NCBI RefSeq assembly: GCF_024345415.1
Contig: NZ_JAGQBB010000001.1
Span: forward strand, 186,001 to 250,000
Reading direction: 5' to 3'
From: Synechococcus sp. Tobar12-5m-g
GTDB taxonomy: Bacteria > Cyanobacteriota > Cyanobacteriia > PCC-6307 > Cyanobiaceae
Length of the DNA: 64,000 nucleotides
Shown here: positions 1 through 41,265 of the stretch, in pieces
How positions within the stretch are numbered: position 1 is the stretch's first letter
Layout: every line of letters starts with the position of its first letter
The notes under the pieces: generated by a model
Databases searched by the model: none
Told to the model about the DNA's origin: nothing
What the model saw: the letters and a program-made list of their open reading frames with translations, nothing else
Program-made: the position numbers and the translations under genes

Positions 1-462
1 GCGCAGCACGAAGAACTCGGTTTCGATCCCCAGGTTGAAGCGGTAACCCATGGCGGCGGCCTGGGCGCGGACGCGGTTCAAGATGTTGCGGCTGCAGGCC
101 TCGAACGGGGCGCCGTTGAGCTGGAGGTTGCTGGCCAGCCAGGCCACATCCGGCTTCCAGGGCAGCACCGTGGCGCTGGCGGGGTCGGGCACGGCGGCCA
201 CCTCGTCGTCGCTCACCTCCTGGGGGACGCCATCGAGGGCGGCGCCCGTGAACAACTCGGAGCCGCGCAGCATCTGGCCCAGGTGGGCGAGGGGTACGGC
301 CTTGGCCTTGCTGACGCCGTGCAGGTCGACGAAGGAGGCGAGGGCGTAGCGCACACCCTTGGCGGCCAGCTGGGCCTTGAGATCGGTCGCGCCGCTGCTG
401 CCCGTCACTGGAGTGCTGGCCGTTGGGTGGGCGGCCATGGGATCGGAGATGGACAAGCTCAT
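1..462 (-). CDS. glnT: Type III glutamine-synthetase-like ligase (GlnT family), N-terminal part, cut by window edge
   Basis: The 154 visible residues match the N-terminal beta-grasp domain and the start of the catalytic domain of type III glutamate-ammonia ligases. I see [15 protein letters not shown] near residue 40, [12 protein letters not shown] near 88, and the metal-binding start GIETEFF near 147, after which the window ends. The start ATG overlaps the TGA of the hypB-like gene as ATGA, so the two are probably translationally coupled. It is the fourth gene of the guanidine-riboswitch operon. It may assimilate ammonia released from guanidine, or glutamylate a related amine; GlnT-type enzymes include gamma-glutamylmethylamide synthetases. 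A paralogue lies at 40000-41265. Family is well supported; substrate is inference. Confidence 0.88.
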
Positions 463-1223
463 CGGGTCACCAGGGCGGGGAAGGGGATGTCGTTGATGGC
501 TTGCGTCGTTGGTTCAGTGGTTGGTTCAGAGGCTGGTTCGCTGGCGGTGCGCACTGCCGCCACCTGCTCCAGCAGCCACTGGTGCCAGGCGCCAAGGCCC
601 TCACCGCTGCTGGCGGAGAGCAGGAACACCTGGGCCCGGGGATTCACCTGTTGCACGTGCTCCACGAAGCGTTCCACCTGCACGGGAAGGTAAGGGAGCA
701 GATCGATCTTGGTGATCAGCACGCAGTCCGCCTCGCGAAACATCACCGGGTACTTGAGCGGCTTGTCCTCGCCCTCGGTGACGCTGAGCAGGGCCACCTT
801 GAGGTGCTCACCCACCTCGAACTCGGCCGGGCAGACCAGGTTGCCCACGTTTTCCACCCAGAGCAGATCCAGCGAGGCCGGATCGAGGCGCTGCTGGAGC
901 AGCTTGAGGCCACCGCTCACCATCGAGGCATCCAGGTGGCAGGCGCGGCCGGTGGTGATCGGCACCACCGGCACCCCCACCGCCTCCAAGCGCTGGGCGT
1001 CCAGATGGGTGGTCATGTCGCCCTCGAGCACGGCCATCTCCAACTGGGGGGCAAGGGCGGTGATCGTGCGCTCCAGCAGGGAGGTCTTGCCGGCGCCGGG
1101 GCTGCTCATCACGTTCAGGCAGAGCAGGCGCCAGGCATCGAAGTGCTCGCGGTTGTGCTCGGCCCGGTGCTGGTTGGCGGCCAGCAGGTTGATTCCGAGC
1201 GTGTCGCTGAGGGGCATGTGCAT
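459..1223 (-). CDS. hypB: HypB-like nickel-chaperone GTPase (GhaB-type)
   Basis: SIMIBI-class GTPase of the HypB/UreG family, about 254 residues. The P-loop is SSPGAGKTS, followed by [12 protein letters not shown] (switch region), [17 protein letters not shown] (the Walker B/metal-site region typical of HypB) and the guanine-specificity motif TKIDLLPYL. No histidine-rich or CxxCGC N-terminus is seen. The start is the ATG at 1223, five bases after the hypA stop; a second ATG two codons in (1217) is also possible. HypB proteins deliver Ni to hydrogenase, but no hydrogenase gene is in view. Placement beside the guanidine hydrolase fits the GhaA/GhaB chaperones known to activate Synechocystis GdmH. 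The C-terminal tail is rich in Ser/Glu/Pro/Thr and of unknown role. Confidence 0.9.
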
Positions 1224-1227
1224 GGGA

Positions 1228-1659
1228 TCAGGGCGCTGAGGACAGGGCTGGGGTAGGGACTGCGATGAGGGCCGCGGCCTGGGGCGCCTCAGGCGAGGTT
1301 GCGTCGTGGAGCTGGTAGTCGATCGAGCGGATCCGCAGCTCACGTCCGGAGACGATCTCCTCCATCGGGTGATCGCAGCAGGGGGAGCGGTAGGCGTTCC
1401 CCTGGTCGGGGTCGTAGATCGCTTCGCAGCGCAGGCAGCGGGCCCGCAGCGGGATCGATTCGATCCGCAGTTCCGACCCCTCCAGCCAGCTGCCCCGCAC
1501 TCCGGTGCCGTAGGTGAACACCAGCGCTTCGGGCTCCACACAAGTGAAGGTGCCCACTTGCAGGTGCACCACTCTCACCTCAGGTTCCTGGGGCCGATGC
1601 TGTCCTTTCCATTCATTGAGGGAGAGCAGCAGGCACCTGGTCATGTCGACTTCATGCAT
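1228..1659 (-). CDS. hypA: HypA-like nickel metallochaperone (GhaA-type)
   Basis: Small protein of 143 residues beginning [12 protein letters not shown]. The MHE start is the conserved Ni-binding N-terminus of HypA/HybF proteins. A zinc site is visible as CLRC near residue 75 and PCCDHP near 94, a variant of the usual two CxxC pairs. It sits between the guanidine hydrolase (3 bp upstream) and the hypB-like GTPase (4 bp downstream), so co-translation is likely. By analogy with Synechocystis Sll1077-1079 it should help load nickel into the hydrolase rather than a hydrogenase. The family call is strong. The client protein is inferred from position. Confidence 0.9.
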
Positions 1660-1662
1660 GGC

Positions 1663-2868
1663 TCACCGCCACTTCTGATCGACGGCCATGTTGCAAGCCT
1701 CATGGAGCCAGGGCGGTTTCGCCTTGCGGGGCAGCTGGCCGCTGACCACCAGATGGGCCATCACATCGCAGATCACCCGGGTCGCCATCAAGGAGGTCAT
1801 GTCGCTGACGTCGTAGGGGGGGGACACCTCCACCACCTCAAGGCCGCAAACCGGCACGTTGCGCACGATCAGCTCCAGCAGCTTGAGGGCTTCGCGGGGC
1901 AGCAGGCCGCCCGGTTCGGGCCAGCCGGTGCCGGGCACGAAGCCGGCGTCGATGCAGTCGATGTCGAAGGAGATGTACACACAATCGGTGCCGTCGGTGG
2001 CCCGCTCGATCGCGAACTTGGCGGCGGCCTCCAGGCCCATGTCGCAGATGTCGGTGACGGTGAGCACGTTGGTGCCCCGCTCCCGGCAGACCTTCACGCC
2101 TTCGCGGGGCACCTGCCAGCCGCCGATGCCCAGTTGGACCAGGTTTTCAGCCGGGGCGTTGGCCATGTTGGTGGCATGGAACCAGGGGCAGGTGTGCATG
2201 CGCTCGTCCAGGTCGATCTCCTGGGTGTCGACGTGGCGATCGAAGTGGATGATCCCCACCTTCTTGTCGCCTAGGTGGCGGCAGACGCCCCGCACGGTGG
2301 GGAAGCCGATCGAGTGGTCGCCCCCCAGCAGGATCGGGAAAGCGCCACTGGCGAACACATGGGCCACCCCCTTGGAAATCTGATCGAAGCTCTTCTCGTT
2401 GTTGGCCGGAATCGTGAAGATATCGCCCACATCGCAGAGCTTGATCGATTCGCGCAGGTCCACCCCCATCTCGTAGTTGTAGGGCGTGTAGAGGGCGGAA
2501 ATACGGCGGATGCCCTGGGGGCCGAAGCGGGTGCCGGGGCGGTAGGTGGTGCCGGAATCGTGGGGAATGCCCACGATCGCCACATCGAACTCGCCGACCC
2601 TGTTGACGTCCTCGATGTAGGGCGCCTTCATGAACGTGTTGATGCCCGCGTAGTGGGGCAGCTCGCCGCGGGAGAAGGTGGAGATGCGGCGGTCGACGAT
2701 GCTCTCGGCCGCTTCAAGGCCGTAGCGCAGGCCCTGTTCCACCTCCTGCTGCCAGCCGGTGAGGGGCAGGCGGGCTTCCTTTTCAAGGGCTTCGGCTCCC
2801 TGCTGGCCGACGCCCTTTCCGGGGGTGGGCTGCTCGAAGGTCCCGGCTGAGCCTAAAATCTCGCTCAT
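1663..2868 (-). CDS. gdmH: Nickel-dependent guanidine hydrolase (agmatinase/arginase fold)
   Basis: Ureohydrolase-superfamily enzyme of 401 residues, longer than classical agmatinases (about 300). Metal-binding motifs are LGGDHSIGFP, HFDRHVDTQE and SFDIDCIDAGFVPGTG. The extended N-terminus and the segment HTCPWFHATN resemble the guanidine hydrolase GdmH group (Synechocystis Sll1077) more than agmatinase. Expected reaction: guanidine plus water to urea plus ammonia, in the cytoplasm. I chose the ATG at 2868 (MSEILGSAG) because it lies just downstream of a guanidine-I riboswitch; an in-frame upstream ATG would lie inside the riboswitch. HypA/HypB-like genes follow at once. Automated annotation may call it agmatinase (speB); the riboswitch and chaperones argue against that. 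Confidence 0.9.
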   Translation of the reverse strand: MSEILGSAGTFEQPTPGKGVGQQGAEALEKEARLPLTGWQQEVEQGLRYGLEAAESIVDRRISTFSRGELPHYAGINTFMKAPYIEDVNRVGEFDVAIVGIPHDSGTTYRPGTRFGPQGIRRISALYTPYNYEMGVDLRESIKLCDVGDIFTIPANNEKSFDQISKGVAHVFASGAFPILLGGDHSIGFPTVRGVCRHLGDKKVGIIHFDRHVDTQEIDLDERMHTCPWFHATNMANAPAENLVQLGIGGWQVPREGVKVCRERGTNVLTVTDICDMGLEAAAKFAIERATDGTDCVYISFDIDCIDAGFVPGTGWPEPGGLLPREALKLLELIVRNVPVCGLEVVEVSPPYDVSDMTSLMATRVICDVMAHLVVSGQLPRKAKPPWLHEACNMAVDQKWR

Positions 2869-2887
2869 GGAGGGGCACGGATGGGGT

Positions 2888-3010
2888 GAAGCGGTCTCCC
2901 GGGCTTTTGTCCCTCCGTGCAACCAGGTGACCCTGGTGAGTTCCTCTCGGACCAGGCGTCCCGAACCTCACCGTGGCGAGATTGGAGACCGGAACCCTAG
3001 GAACTGCTTC
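2888..3010 (-). promoter_or_regulatory. Guanidine-I (ykkC class) riboswitch
   Basis: Read on the minus strand, the leader carries the highly conserved blocks of the guanidine-I aptamer: CTAGGGTTCCG near 3000, GGTCCGAGAG near 2950, and GGAGGGACAAAAGCCCGGG at about 2899-2917. Outer GAAGC (3006-3010) and GCTTC (2888-2892) can pair as the closing stem. It ends 19 bases before the ATG of the guanidine hydrolase gene, so guanidine binding should turn on the whole operon. I see no obvious intrinsic terminator between aptamer and start, so translational control is possible. The call rests on conserved motif order. Confidence 0.93.
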
Positions 3011-3116
3011 CGCTCGATGAGCTTGAAGCTGACACGGGCCGTGGTGTGTAGCACTCGCAACCGAAACAGCGGCTGGTCGGGGGAACAGTGCGCCCGAGGT
3101 GAAGGGCGAGGAAGCG

Positions 3117-3953
3117 ATGGCGACGCGGCTGTTCAAGAGCCTGTGGGGCTGGGGTGGCTCCCTGGAGGCGGCGATCGCGGCGGCTTTGGCCCATGGCTTT
3201 GATGGTCTTGAGCTCAACCTCCACCACCCTTGCCTGGTGGGCCTGGAGGCGATCGTGGTACGTCGGGCTCTGGCGGCAGCGGAGCTGGAGCTGATCGTGG
3301 AGGTGGTGACAGGTGGCGATTACGTGCCGGATCTGGATCGCGGGCCGGCCCAGCACCTCGACGACCTGGGGGGGCAACTGGCGGCCAGCCGGGCGCTGGC
3401 ACCGGTGAAGGTGACCGTGATCGGCGGCAATGACAGCTGGACCTGGGAGGTGGAGCAGGGCTACTGGGCGGGAGCCCTGGAGCGGGTGGAGCGCAGCAGG
3501 CTGGCGGTGAGCTTCGAGACCCACCGCTCCCGCTGCCTGGCGAGCCCCTGGGGCATCGCCCGCACCCTGGAGGCCTTCCCCACCCTGCGGCTCACGGCCG
3601 ATCTGAGCCACTGGTGTGTGGTGGCGGAGCGGCTGATGACGCCGGAGCTGGCGCCGATTCAGGCCATGGCGGACCGCGTCGATCACATCCATGCCCGGGT
3701 GGGCTGGGCCCAGGGGCCCCAGGTGTCCCATCCGCTTGCGCCGGAGCACCGGGAGGCGCTGGAGGCCCATGGGGGCTGCTGGGCGTTGTTCGCCGAGCGG
3801 CACCGCTTGCAGGGAGGAGGAGCGATCACGGTGACACCCGAATTCGGCCCCGATGGCTATCTGCCGACGCTGCCTTTCACCAATCAGCCGGTGGCCGATC
3901 TGAGCGAGATCAACCGGGCCATGGCGGCCTGGGTGCGGCAGCGGCTGGAGTGA
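3117..3953 (+). CDS. Sugar phosphate isomerase/epimerase-like TIM barrel protein
   Basis: Protein of 278 residues starting MATRLFKSLWGWGGS, in the xylose-isomerase-like TIM barrel superfamily. Typical elements are FDGLELNL near residue 27, VSFETHRSR near 128, LRLTADLSHW near 155, VDHIHARVG near 185 and the C-terminal VTPEFGPDGY near 238. Glu, Asp, His and Glu in these strands are likely metal ligands. The ATG at 3117 follows a GAGGAAG-like ribosome site; an in-frame GTG at 3099 is less likely. It is divergent from the guanidine operon, separated by the riboswitch leader. Substrate is unknown. Confidence 0.8.
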   Translation: MATRLFKSLWGWGGSLEAAIAAALAHGFDGLELNLHHPCLVGLEAIVVRRALAAAELELIVEVVTGGDYVPDLDRGPAQHLDDLGGQLAASRALAPVKVTVIGGNDSWTWEVEQGYWAGALERVERSRLAVSFETHRSRCLASPWGIARTLEAFPTLRLTADLSHWCVVAERLMTPELAPIQAMADRVDHIHARVGWAQGPQVSHPLAPEHREALEAHGGCWALFAERHRLQGGGAITVTPEFGPDGYLPTLPFTNQPVADLSEINRAMAAWVRQRLE

Positions 3954-39999: not shown

Positions 40000-41265
40000 A
40001 TGACCGACCTGGCCCGTTACGCCGCCGACCACGGCATCCGCCATTTCCTGTTCTCCTTTTCTGATCTGTTCGGCGTGCAGCGGGCCAAGCTGGTGCCCGC
40101 CTGCGCCGTGGAGGGTGTTGCCCGGGATGGGGCGGGCTTCGCCGGCTTTGCGGCCTGGCTCGCCATGACCCCGGCCGACCCCGACGTGCTGGGGCTGCCC
40201 GATCCGGCCAGCCTGATGGTGCTGCCCTGGCAGCGGCAGGTGGCCTGGGTGGCCACCGACCTGCAGGTGGAGGGCCAGCCCCTGGAGCAGTCGCCCCGCT
40301 GGGTGCTCAAACGACAGCTGGAGCGTGCCGGCGCCCTCGGCTACCGGTTCCGCACCGGCGTCGAGGCGGAGTTCTTCCTGCTGACCCAGGATGGCGGGGC
40401 GATCGCCGATGCCGGGGACACCCAGACCAAGCCCTGCTACGACCAGCTGGCCCTGATGAGCCAGCTCCCCCTGATCGGCGGGCTGCTGGAGGCAATGGAG
40501 GAGCTGGGCTGGGGCCCCTACCAGGCCGATCACGAGGATGCCAATGGCCAGTTCGAGATCAACTGGACCTTCGCCGATGCCCTGGTGACGGCTGACCGCC
40601 ACGCCTTCTTCCGGGTGATGGCCAGCGGCATGGCCGAGCAGCAGGGCTTGGGAGTGAGCTTCGCGCCTAAACCATTCGCCGACCTCACCGGCAACGGCGC
40701 CCACCTGCACCATTCGCTCTGGAACGCGGAGGGCCGCAACCTGTTCCACGATCCCCTCGGCGAGAAAGGGCTCTCAGCCCTGGCCTATGCCTTCCTCGCA
40801 GGGGTGCTGGAGCACGCCGCCGCCCTCTGCGCCCTCACCAACCCCACACCGGAAAGCTACAGGCGCCTGGCAGGGCGGCCCACCAGCTCCGGCGCCACCT
40901 GGTCGCCGGGCTGGATCAGCTATGGCGGCAACAACCGCACCCACATGGTCCGCATCCCCGACGCTCAACGCCTCGAGCTTCGCCTGGCCGACGGGGCCGC
41001 CAACCCCTACCTGCTGCCGGCGGCCGTGCTGGCCGCCGGACTCGACGGCATCGAGCGGGGCCTGGACCCCGGCCCCCGCAGCGACGCCAACACCTACACC
41101 GATCCCCCCACCGGTGATGCGGCGAAACCCCTCCCGGCCAGTCCAGCCGAGGCCCTGGCGGCATTCGCCGCCGACCGAATCCTGCGGGAGGCCCTGGGGG
41201 AGCCCTTCTGCCAGGCCTACGAAAGCCTGCGCCGGCAGGACCTTGCAGGCAGTGCCGGGGGTTGA
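40000..41265 (+). CDS. glnT: Type III glutamine-synthetase-like ligase (GlnT family)
   Basis: Protein of 421 residues. The N-terminal beta-grasp has FSFSDLFGVQRAKLVP near residue 18 and LPDPASLMVLPW near 65. Catalytic motifs are GVEAEFFLL near 119, the His site LTGNGAHLHHSLW near 230, and the substrate-binding GGNNRTHMVRIP near 308. It should ligate an amine or ammonia to glutamate with ATP. It is a diverged paralogue of the gene at 1-462. Being last in the rightward run, right after a hydrolase, it may fix ammonia or an amine released by that enzyme. Substrate is inference. Confidence 0.87.
   Translation: MTDLARYAADHGIRHFLFSFSDLFGVQRAKLVPACAVEGVARDGAGFAGFAAWLAMTPADPDVLGLPDPASLMVLPWQRQVAWVATDLQVEGQPLEQSPRWVLKRQLERAGALGYRFRTGVEAEFFLLTQDGGAIADAGDTQTKPCYDQLALMSQLPLIGGLLEAMEELGWGPYQADHEDANGQFEINWTFADALVTADRHAFFRVMASGMAEQQGLGVSFAPKPFADLTGNGAHLHHSLWNAEGRNLFHDPLGEKGLSALAYAFLAGVLEHAAALCALTNPTPESYRRLAGRPTSSGATWSPGWISYGGNNRTHMVRIPDAQRLELRLADGAANPYLLPAAVLAAGLDGIERGLDPGPRSDANTYTDPPTGDAAKPLPASPAEALAAFAADRILREALGEPFCQAYESLRRQDLAGSAGG

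What the first reader, a model, noticed from the sequence alone, without database searches (positions are those of the whole stretch)
1..3010. Riboswitch-controlled guanidine-degradation operon with its own nickel chaperones
The conserved guanidine-I aptamer blocks precede a GdmH-like hydrolase, then HypA- and HypB-like chaperones. No hydrogenase is in view, so the chaperones most likely serve the hydrolase. A cyanobacterial version of this system is described (Synechocystis GdmH with GhaA/GhaB); the added ligase gene and the arrangement here may be new.
Basis: partly seen in the sequence, partly recalled or inferred. Interest (0 to 1): 0.7.

Follow-up and report, generated by a model that had tools for sequence, protein, structure and literature searches.

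The report
Guanidine-degrading operon with extra enzymes
This picocyanobacterium carries a guanidine-sensing RNA switch in front of a guanidine-breaking nickel enzyme and its helper proteins, a system already known from other cyanobacteria, but here joined by three further enzymes of unknown purpose that, in the related genomes searched, turn up only alongside it.

Summary
Window 2894-3011 (-) is a guanidine-I riboswitch (RF00442, 80.7 bits, cut-off 63) before a guanidinase orthologue (770 bits to Synechocystis GdmH, next family 170) and HypA- and HypB-like genes. A hydrogenase lies elsewhere in the genome with another HypA beside it, which supports dedicated chaperones. This core is known, and the picocyanobacterial version with its Rieske gene is in print (Dore 2023, passages). 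In 121 family genomes the ligase (22), Rieske (26) and TIM barrel (26) occur only with gdmH (42); Rieske and TIM barrel share 25. In 24 loci of other cyanobacterial families, ligase and TIM barrel were found in none, Rieske in two. The ligase lacks both ammonia-site hallmarks of glutamine synthetase, so it probably joins glutamate to an amine. I infer, untested, that the extras widen the diet to substituted guanidines or amines. New variant of a known kind.

The parts
2894..3011 (-). Guanidine-I (ykkC class 1) riboswitch aptamer
   Evidence: Rfam RF00442, 80.7 bits, cut-off 63, positions 1-107 of 107
2914..2920 (-). 5' arm (GCACGGA, inside the conserved aptamer core) of a candidate off-state hairpin
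   Evidence: Seven-base perfect complement of 2875-2881; local fold -22.1 kcal/mol, z -2.54, 1 of 200 shuffles as good. Candidate expression platform, inferred
2875..2881 (-). 3' arm (UCCGUGC) of the candidate off-state hairpin; six bases separate it from the gdmH start codon
   Evidence: no terminator-like site in 2850-3140
1663..2868 (-). gdmH, nickel-dependent guanidinase (guanidine hydrolase), 401 aa
   Evidence: 770 bits to 7esr/7oi1, 584 bits to 9fek, next family 170 bits; Arginase PF00491
1228..1659 (-). hypA-like nickel chaperone (ghaA-type), 143 aa
   Evidence: PF01155 84.3 bits, cut-off 28.9; TIGR00100 79.4 bits, under its cut-off of 88.1
459..1223 (-). hypB-like GTPase (ghaB-type)
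   Evidence: TIGR00073 282 bits, cut-off 121.2 (searched as 459-1220)
1..462 (-). N-terminal part of glnT, a gamma-glutamyl-amide ligase of the GmaS/type III GS family; continues to genome C1:185056 (468 aa in all)
   Evidence: whole protein: TIGR03105 557 bits, cut-off 469.6; nearest solved structures 9qur and 7cql are methylamine ligases
3117..3953 (+). Divergent gene for a sugar-isomerase/epimerase-type metal TIM barrel (alternative GTG start at 3099)
   Evidence: AlphaFold model pLDDT 90.4; best Z 20.3, isomerase Art22 and SCO6571; in 121 family genomes found only with gdmH

Best explanation
A guanidine-induced nitrogen-scavenging operon. Guanidine binds the aptamer and switches on gdmH-hypA-hypB-glnT-(ABC importer of three genes)-Rieske. 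The importer brings guanidine in, GdmH hydrolyses it to urea and ammonia with nickel loaded by the dedicated HypA/HypB pair, and urease finishes the job. Without ligand, the conserved aptamer stretch probably pairs with the bases just before the start codon, so control is more likely at translation start than by a terminator (inferred). The family-specific extras probably widen the substrate range (inferred, about 0.35 for this part): the Rieske oxygenase, with the TIM barrel encoded opposite the riboswitch, would oxidatively release free guanidine from N-substituted guanidines, and the ligase would glutamylate the amine partner or a related amine. Shown here: the genes, the riboswitch match, the order, the co-occurrence in the genomes searched, the kept catalytic residues. 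Not shown: any activity, or that the genes form one transcript.
For: Riboswitch over threshold. GdmH orthologue. HypA and HypB families; a second HypA beside the hydrogenase large subunit on C10 and a second HypB on C12. Urease alpha domain present. Gene order in the genome. hypA, hypB and the three ABC genes follow gdmH on the same strand in 48 of 48 non-Prochlorococcus-type loci with at least 6.5 kb downstream; Rieske in 35 of 48; operon-type ligase in 34 of 48, one of them a fragment in L012. Co-occurrence in 121 genomes. Published Synechocystis work: guanidinase activity, growth with guanidine as nitrogen source, operons with hypA, hypB and the ABC genes (PMC8390497, passages; review PMC12186494, passages). 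Off-state hairpin.
Against: No experiment in this organism. The off-state pairing is not seen in every relative: 21 of 58 distinct leaders reach p 0.05 against shuffles by energy and 11 of 58 by length of match; the window's own leader does so by energy (0.025) but not by length (0.205), and leaders share descent. The fold of the whole leader is only z -1.58. Rieske and ligase are only loosely coupled (p 0.055 within gdmH genomes), which argues against one obligatory joint pathway. The best Rieske match in the PDB is weak (carnitine monooxygenase, 71 bits), so its substrate is open. The TIM barrel is on the opposite strand in 25 of the 25 genomes that have it on the gdmH contig, hence outside this riboswitch's transcript; in Prochlorococcus-type loci the Rieske gene stands without it (16 of 16).
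Confidence: 0.87

Rival explanations
1. The ligase is an ordinary glutamine synthetase that fixes the ammonia released by guanidinase and urease; Rieske and TIM barrel are unrelated passengers.
For: The annotation model is type III glutamate-ammonia ligase; three of the residues that differ from GmaS (Asp188, Phe189, Asn237 in RhGmaS numbering) are the letters of the two glutamine synthetases shown in the alignment output.
Against: The two ammonia-site hallmarks are gone: the Asp50' position is Thr in 38 of 38 rows with data, the Glu-flap glutamate is Trp in 37 of 37 (hallmarks from PMC7948447, passages). Solved methylamine ligases score 379 and 338 bits, glutamine synthetases 267 or less. Rieske and TIM barrel were not found without gdmH (0 of 79 genomes without it).
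Confidence: 0.2
2. Aniline-pathway logic: the ligase first glutamylates a guanidine or amine compound and the Rieske oxygenase then attacks the glutamylated form.
For: A glutamine-synthetase-like ligase followed by a Rieske dioxygenase is an established pair for aniline and 1-naphthylamine (PMC11335346, passages); both enzyme types lie in one same-strand gene run here with the key residues kept.
Against: Ligase and Rieske occur without each other in 14 of 42 gdmH genomes (5 ligase only, 9 Rieske only). No GAT-like partner, small oxygenase subunit or reductase gene is among the ORFs of 150 aa or more that I listed in L003; shorter genes were not looked for.
Confidence: 0.12
3. HypA and HypB of the operon serve the hydrogenase or urease and are only neighbours of gdmH.
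For: Family membership alone does not name the client. Comammox guanidinases are reported without nearby nickel chaperones (PMC11410670, passages).
Against: Another HypA lies beside the hydrogenase gene and a second HypB exists; the operon copies are next to gdmH in 48 of 48 loci and in 22 of 24 loci of other families; a review states that the Ni-delivery proteins of the Synechocystis operon are required for the enzyme's activity (PMC12186494, passages).
Confidence: 0.05
4. The hydrolase is an agmatinase or another ureohydrolase that happens to sit behind a guanidine riboswitch.
For: NCBI's agmatinase model TIGR01230 scores 180.5, just over its cut-off of 174.3; the solved guanidinases are deposited as 'agmatinase 2'.
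Against: 770 and 584 bits to the solved guanidinases against 170 to the next family; GTGWP motif in 52 of 52 rows.
Confidence: 0.03
5. The operon detoxifies guanidine made inside the cell rather than feeding the cell.
For: Guanidine is toxic to cyanobacteria and the Synechocystis enzyme protects (PMC8390497, passages).
Against: Importer genes behind gdmH (48 of 48 loci) and urease in the genome point to feeding. The two are not exclusive.
Confidence: 0.12

Closest known systems
Synechocystis PCC 6803 sll1077-sll1082 guanidine operon (GdmH, GhaA/GhaB, ABC importer; Wang 2021, Funck 2022)
   Same: Guanidine-I riboswitch, guanidinase, HypA/HypB-like chaperones and a three-gene ABC importer (PMC8390497, passages). 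In my sample 22 of 24 gdmH loci from other cyanobacterial families have hypA and hypB matches (HypB only a 66-aa match in L116) and 19 of 24 all three ABC genes.
   Different: Operon-type ligase and TIM barrel found in 0 of those 24 loci, Rieske in 2 of 24 at 30-31% identity. The names GhaA/GhaB are recalled and in the finding; Funck 2022 is not held.
Marine picocyanobacterial guanidinase cluster (Pro-eCAG_004, Syn-eCAG_001; Dore 2023, PMC10119275)
   Same: speB2 (gdmH), hypA, hypB, ABC importer, downstream Rieske gene, ykkC riboswitch in Synechococcus reference genomes (passages).
   Different: The terms 'glutamine synthetase', 'isomerase' and 'xylose' have no match in its main text (figures and supplements not seen). 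The ligase is absent from 16 of 16 Prochlorococcus-type loci with enough flank and from Synechococcus RCC307.
GmaS, gamma-glutamylmethylamide synthetase (RhGmaS 7cql; 9qur)
   Same: Loss of the GS ammonia site (no Asp50', Trp in place of the Glu flap); catalytic Asp177, Glu186, Arg312 kept in 37 of 37 rows with data.
   Different: Pocket residues Gln175 is Ser and Asn188 is Asp in 37 of 37 rows with data; the genome has a separate, much closer GmaS (window 40000-41265, 507 bits to 7cql).
Aniline / 1-naphthylamine dioxygenase systems (AtdA, NpaA)
   Same: A glutamine-synthetase-like ligase and a Rieske oxygenase in one gene cluster (PMC11335346, passages).
   Different: Guanidine-riboswitch setting; no GAT-like enzyme, small subunit or reductase gene among the ORFs of 150 aa or more listed.

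Membership tests
Guanidine-I riboswitch (RF00442) | Covariance model score at or above the curated threshold, full-length match | tested here: met
   80.7 v 63 bits, 1-107 of 107
Guanidine-I riboswitch (RF00442) | Binds guanidine and turns expression on | not testable with these tools
   needs in-line probing or a reporter
GdmH guanidinase | Closer to solved guanidinases than to any other solved ureohydrolase | tested here: met
   770 and 584 bits v 170
GdmH guanidinase | Active-site tryptophan (Trp305 in Synechocystis, Trp313 in N. inopinata; PMC11410670, passages) | tested here: met
   Trp in the GTGWP motif here and in 52 of 52 GdmH rows, Thr in the agmatinase-like paralogue; this Trp is aligned with both solved guanidinases, but that it is the Trp305/Trp313 of the paper I did not check by numbering
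GdmH guanidinase | Nickel-dependent hydrolysis of guanidine to urea and ammonium | not testable with these tools
   no assay
HypA/HypB nickel chaperones | Family match; His-Glu start of HypA | tested here: met
   PF01155, TIGR00073; HE at positions 2-3 in 51 of 51 HypA rows, the hydrogenase-side one included; that this binds nickel is recalled
HypA of hydrogenase (TIGR00100 equivalog) | Curated cut-off for hydrogenase HypA | tested here: not met
   79.4 v 88.1 bits, so it is not filed as a hydrogenase HypA
Glutamine synthetase (ammonia) | Asp50' and Glu-flap glutamate of the ammonia site (PMC7948447, passages) | tested here: not met
   Thr in 38 of 38, Trp in 37 of 37 rows with data
GmaS (methylamine ligase) | Catalytic Asp177, Glu186, Arg312 | tested here: met
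   37 of 37 rows with data
GmaS (methylamine ligase) | Methylamine pocket Tyr147, Gln175, Asp177, Glu179, Glu186, Asn188, Lys30' | tested here: not met
   five kept, Gln175Ser and Asn188Asp in 37 of 37 rows with data; so it works like a gamma-glutamyl-amide ligase but is not filed as a methylamine ligase
Rieske non-haem iron oxygenase | Rieske CxH-CxxH and the two-His-one-carboxylate iron site | tested here: met
   C79, H81, C101, H104, H220, H225, D330 invariant in 27 aligned rows (the roles are recalled); PF00355 and PF00848 over cut-off
Xylose-isomerase-like TIM barrel (AP_endonuc_2) | Fold | tested here: met
   model pLDDT 90.4, Z up to 20.3 to sugar isomerases and epimerases
Xylose-isomerase-like TIM barrel (AP_endonuc_2) | Pfam curated cut-off | tested here: not met
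   PF01261 21.8 v 31.1 bits
Xylose-isomerase-like TIM barrel (AP_endonuc_2) | Metal ligands | tested here: inconclusive
   E134, D162, H165, H192, E242 invariant in 35 rows; that these are the ligands is recalled, not checked on the model

The most novel reading that the evidence does not exclude
Picocyanobacteria have turned the guanidine operon into a pathway for larger guanidino compounds: the Rieske oxygenase and its TIM-barrel partner liberate guanidine from N-substituted guanidines, and a new subclass of gamma-glutamyl ligase, neither glutamine synthetase nor methylamine ligase, glutamylates a guanidine-derived amine or guanidine itself. That would give a natural source for the free guanidine that these riboswitches sense.
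Probability: 0.3. Interest if true: 0.68.

Novelty: new variant of a known kind. Interest (0 to 1): 0.42.

Why it matters
Where free guanidine comes from in nature is an open question behind the guanidine riboswitches. An oxygenase, a metal TIM barrel and an amine ligase that, in the genomes searched, occur only with guanidinase are concrete candidates for enzymes that feed guanidine into the known pathway. The core of the finding itself is a confirmation of known biology in a further genome.

Tried and rejected
Agmatinase reading of the hydrolase: rejected. Chaperones for hydrogenase or urease: rejected as main client. Gamma-glutamylamine cyclotransferase gene (L003:2969-3826) as a partner of the ligase: a match in 4 of 48 loci only, dropped. 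MgtA and the ABCD-type exporter downstream of the Rieske gene: 4 of 48 and 1 of 48, dropped. An acidic residue in the ligase pocket (Asp188) as a sign of a guanidinium substrate: dropped, because the two glutamine synthetases shown carry Asp there too. An intrinsic terminator as the switch: none found in 2850-3140. No sequence match of the TIM barrel in the PDB at E 0.1; the fold search gives only the broad superfamily, no substrate.

Paper searches (ten in all; open-licence PMC papers only): methylguanidine + riboswitch + Rieske gave 0 papers; guanidine hydrolase + riboswitch + glutamine synthetase gave two papers that I did not read further (PMC11018352, PMC12930504, listing); guanidine + Rieske + cyanobacteri + guanidinase (three of four) led to the Dore paper and, in the listing only, a Nitrospirales paper PMC12342949 that I did not read; gmaS + Synechococcus + methylamine + Cyanobium gave nothing on point in the listing. 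So 'not found in print' for the ligase and TIM barrel means these searches and the main text of Dore 2023.

Trees: the outgroups were one or two very long branches from the same genome, so the trees show that the operon copies cluster and little more. A HypA set was made but no HypA tree.

Rows left out: of 39 TIM-barrel ORFs found, 34 plus the window's own were aligned; of 55 Rieske ORFs, 26 plus the genome's own; the HypB, HypA and GdmH sets took every third of the 80 loci plus the own locus and 24 others, with a length filter. Of 40 operon-type ligase matches two were fragments (L012; L031 on a short contig) and were not put into the pocket count. In the 80-locus tally, 15 of 63 non-Prochlorococcus-type and 1 of 17 Prochlorococcus-type loci had under 6.5 kb downstream and were not counted.

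Mended on checking: an automatic count of 35 of 48 ligases took in L021, whose match is a 43% paralogue; the operon-type count is 34 of 48. The strand count for the TIM barrel took in G188, where the two genes are on different contigs; it is left out above.
Full report
What is there. The window is positions 186001-250000 of contig C1 of a 2.95 Mb genome; the closest GdmH matches in other records are from Cyanobium and Synechococcus. On the minus strand, reading down from position 3011, stand a guanidine-I riboswitch aptamer (2894-3011, 80.7 bits against a cut-off of 63), gdmH (1663-2868), a hypA-like gene (1228-1659), a hypB-like gene (459-1223) and the start of a ligase (462 and on), which the window edge cuts.

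The operon goes on. In the genome (L003, C1:172001-191000) the same strand continues with the whole ligase (468 aa), an SsuA-type binding protein, a permease, an ATPase and a Rieske oxygenase, ending at C1:181147. Beyond it lie a magnesium P-type ATPase and an exporter-like ABC gene, found in only 4 and 1 of 48 related loci. On the other side of the riboswitch, on the plus strand, window 3117-3953 encodes a small TIM barrel. That the minus-strand genes form one transcript is inferred from spacing and strand.

Is the hydrolase a guanidinase? Yes by homology. It scores 770 bits to the Synechocystis guanidinase structures (7esr, 7oi1) and 584 to that of Nitrospira inopinata (9fek); the other ureohydrolases among the 60 of 71 matches shown are at 170 bits or less. 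The GTGWP tryptophan is in 52 of 52 GdmH rows and replaced by threonine in the genome's own agmatinase-like paralogue. In a tree of 53 rows the 52 gdmH-locus proteins stand apart from that paralogue, but the paralogue is a single very long branch, so this adds little. A result on the other side: NCBI's agmatinase model scores just over its cut-off (180.5 v 174.3), as expected from the old annotation of this family.

Do the chaperones belong to it? Probably. The genome has one NiFe hydrogenase large subunit, on C10, with a HypA gene about 0.5 kb away on the same strand, and a second HypB on C12. The operon HypA is 28% identical (over 90 aa) to that HypA and the operon HypB 48% to that HypB, while operon HypBs of other cyanobacterial families are 58-66% identical to it, leaving aside one short match of 45% over 66 aa in L116. 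hypA and hypB follow gdmH in 48 of 48 non-Prochlorococcus-type loci with at least 6.5 kb downstream, in 16 of 16 Prochlorococcus-type loci, and are matched in 22 of 24 loci of other families (missing in L094 and L095). Comammox guanidinases are reported to lack such neighbours (PMC11410670, passages), so chaperones are not universal. Urease is present (alpha domain on C43), so urea can be used.

How far is this known? The Synechocystis guanidinase, its nitrogen function and operons with hypA, hypB and the ABC genes are published (Wang 2021, PMC8390497, passages; review PMC12186494, passages). The marine picocyanobacterial cluster with speB2, hypA, hypB, the importer, a Rieske gene and the riboswitch is published too (Dore 2023, PMC10119275, passages). 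I found no mention of the ligase or the TIM barrel in its main text (term search); its figures and supplements I did not see. Funck 2022 and Nelson 2017 are not held; what I say of GhaA/GhaB is recalled.

The accessory genes. In four searches of 121 genomes of the family each (same draw, by the handles), gdmH is in 42, the Rieske gene in 26, the TIM barrel in 26 and the operon-type ligase (74% identity or more) in 22; none of the three is found without gdmH (0 of 79). Fisher tests give 9e-16 to 7e-13, but the genomes are related, so these are not true probabilities. Rieske and TIM barrel share 25 genomes; the exceptions are G176 (broken TIM barrel, no Rieske match) and G195 (Rieske, no TIM barrel match). 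Among 40 non-Prochlorococcus-type loci of the other collection with enough flank on both sides, Rieske and TIM barrel are both present in 30 and both absent in 10, whereas the ligase is in 23 of the 30 and 5 of the 10, one of those five a fragment. In the 121-genome set the ligase is within 7 kb of gdmH and on its strand in 22 of 22 genomes; the TIM barrel is within 7 kb in 24 of 26 (G252 12 kb away, G188 on another contig), and on the opposite strand in 25 of the 25 on one contig, upstream of gdmH in 7 of these, as in this window. In a phylum sample of 146 genomes the TIM barrel was in 2, the window's own and one of the same family. In 24 gdmH loci from other families the ligase and TIM barrel were found in 0 and Rieske in 2 (L114, L116, one genus, 30-31%), within stretches of about 2.5 kb upstream and 9.5 kb downstream (4.4 kb downstream in L110). 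Prochlorococcus-type loci keep a Rieske gene (33-34% identity, 16 of 16) but have neither ligase nor TIM barrel in view.

What the ligase is. It passes NCBI's type III glutamate-ammonia ligase model (557 v 469.6 bits), but its nearest solved relatives are methylamine ligases (379 and 338 bits) ahead of glutamine synthetases (267 or less). Using the residue roles given for RhGmaS (PMC7948447, passages) and an alignment of 39 operon-type ligases with the genome's own GmaS, 37 of 37 rows with data keep the catalytic Asp177, Glu186 and Arg312 and have Trp where glutamine synthetase has its Glu-flap glutamate; 38 of 38 have Thr at the Asp50' position. Two of the seven methylamine-pocket residues are changed in all 37: Gln175 to Ser and Asn188 to Asp. 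Asp188, Phe189 and Asn237 are the letters of the two glutamine synthetases shown, so the enzyme is a mosaic that fits neither class. The same genome carries a much closer GmaS at window 40000-41265 (507 bits to 7cql), so the operon ligase is unlikely to be there for plain methylamine.

What the Rieske protein and TIM barrel are. The Rieske protein has both the cluster and the iron-site residues invariant in 27 aligned rows (roles recalled); its best solved relative is carnitine monooxygenase at only 71 bits (that this enzyme cleaves a C-N bond is recalled). The TIM barrel model is good (pLDDT 90.4, 35 rows), matches sugar epimerases and isomerases (Z up to 20.3) and has invariant acidic and histidine residues where, by recall, that superfamily binds metal. 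Neither result names a substrate.

Mechanism of the switch. Seven bases of the conserved aptamer core (2914-2920) are a perfect complement of 2875-2881, six bases before the start codon; the local hairpin folds at -22.1 kcal/mol (z -2.54), while the whole leader is not remarkable (z -1.58). There is no terminator-like site. Across 58 distinct leaders, 21 pair with the core at p 0.05 or less against their shuffles by energy and 11 of 58 by match length; the window's own gives 0.025 by energy and 0.205 by length, and six leaders that I class as marine-type (L057, L061, L063, L064, L066, L067) show nothing. I take this as suggestive for the clade of the window, not as a general rule. By motif, 61 of 80 related loci and the window's own have the aptamer; the 19 without are L049, L054 and the 17 Prochlorococcus-type loci. 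Rfam agreed in 7 of 7 motif-positive loci scanned and 7 of 7 motif-negative loci scanned (L082 has only 120 bases upstream). In other families 10 of 11 scanned loci have it; the eleventh, L094, has its importer genes upstream of gdmH, so the switch may lie outside the stretch.

Verdict. The core claim stands and is known biology in a further genome. The part worth following is the family-specific set of ligase, Rieske oxygenase and TIM barrel. A glutamine-synthetase-like ligase and a Rieske oxygenase are an established pair in aniline and 1-naphthylamine breakdown (PMC11335346, passages), but here they occur apart in 14 of 42 gdmH genomes, so I prefer the looser reading that each widens the range of guanidino or amine substrates. 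That reading is an inference, about 0.35.

Noticed in passing
window 40000-41265 (+): A second ligase, a clear GmaS (gamma-glutamylmethylamide synthetase) orthologue, 507 bits to RhGmaS. Paralogues at 43-49% to the operon ligase lie within roughly 2-6 kb of the operon or its TIM barrel in several relatives, e.g. G212, G230, G150, G166.
   Followed up: partly
L069-L085, L049, L054: Prochlorococcus-type loci and Synechococcus RCC307 (L054) keep the guanidinase gene run without a recognisable guanidine-I riboswitch: 19 of 19 by motif, 7 of 7 of those scanned with Rfam.
   Followed up: partly
L119 (G176) and L012: Possible coupled decay: in L119 the ligase match is partial, the TIM barrel is broken and no Rieske match is seen; L012 has only a ligase fragment and no Rieske or TIM barrel.
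   Followed up: no
L066: A record labelled Acidiferrobacteraceae carries a picocyanobacterial guanidine operon that groups with Synechococcus rows; probably a binning error.
   Followed up: no
L094, L095: In one genus the ABC importer genes lie upstream of gdmH and no hypA/hypB was found in the stretch fetched; the riboswitch may sit before the importer.
   Followed up: no
L003:2969-3826 (+): A gamma-glutamylamine cyclotransferase-like gene (PF06094) lies about 5 kb beyond the Rieske gene; a match in only 4 of 48 loci.
   Followed up: yes
L106:8400-8475 (-): A glutamine riboswitch (RF01739) lies within a few kb of gdmH in one relative.
   Followed up: no
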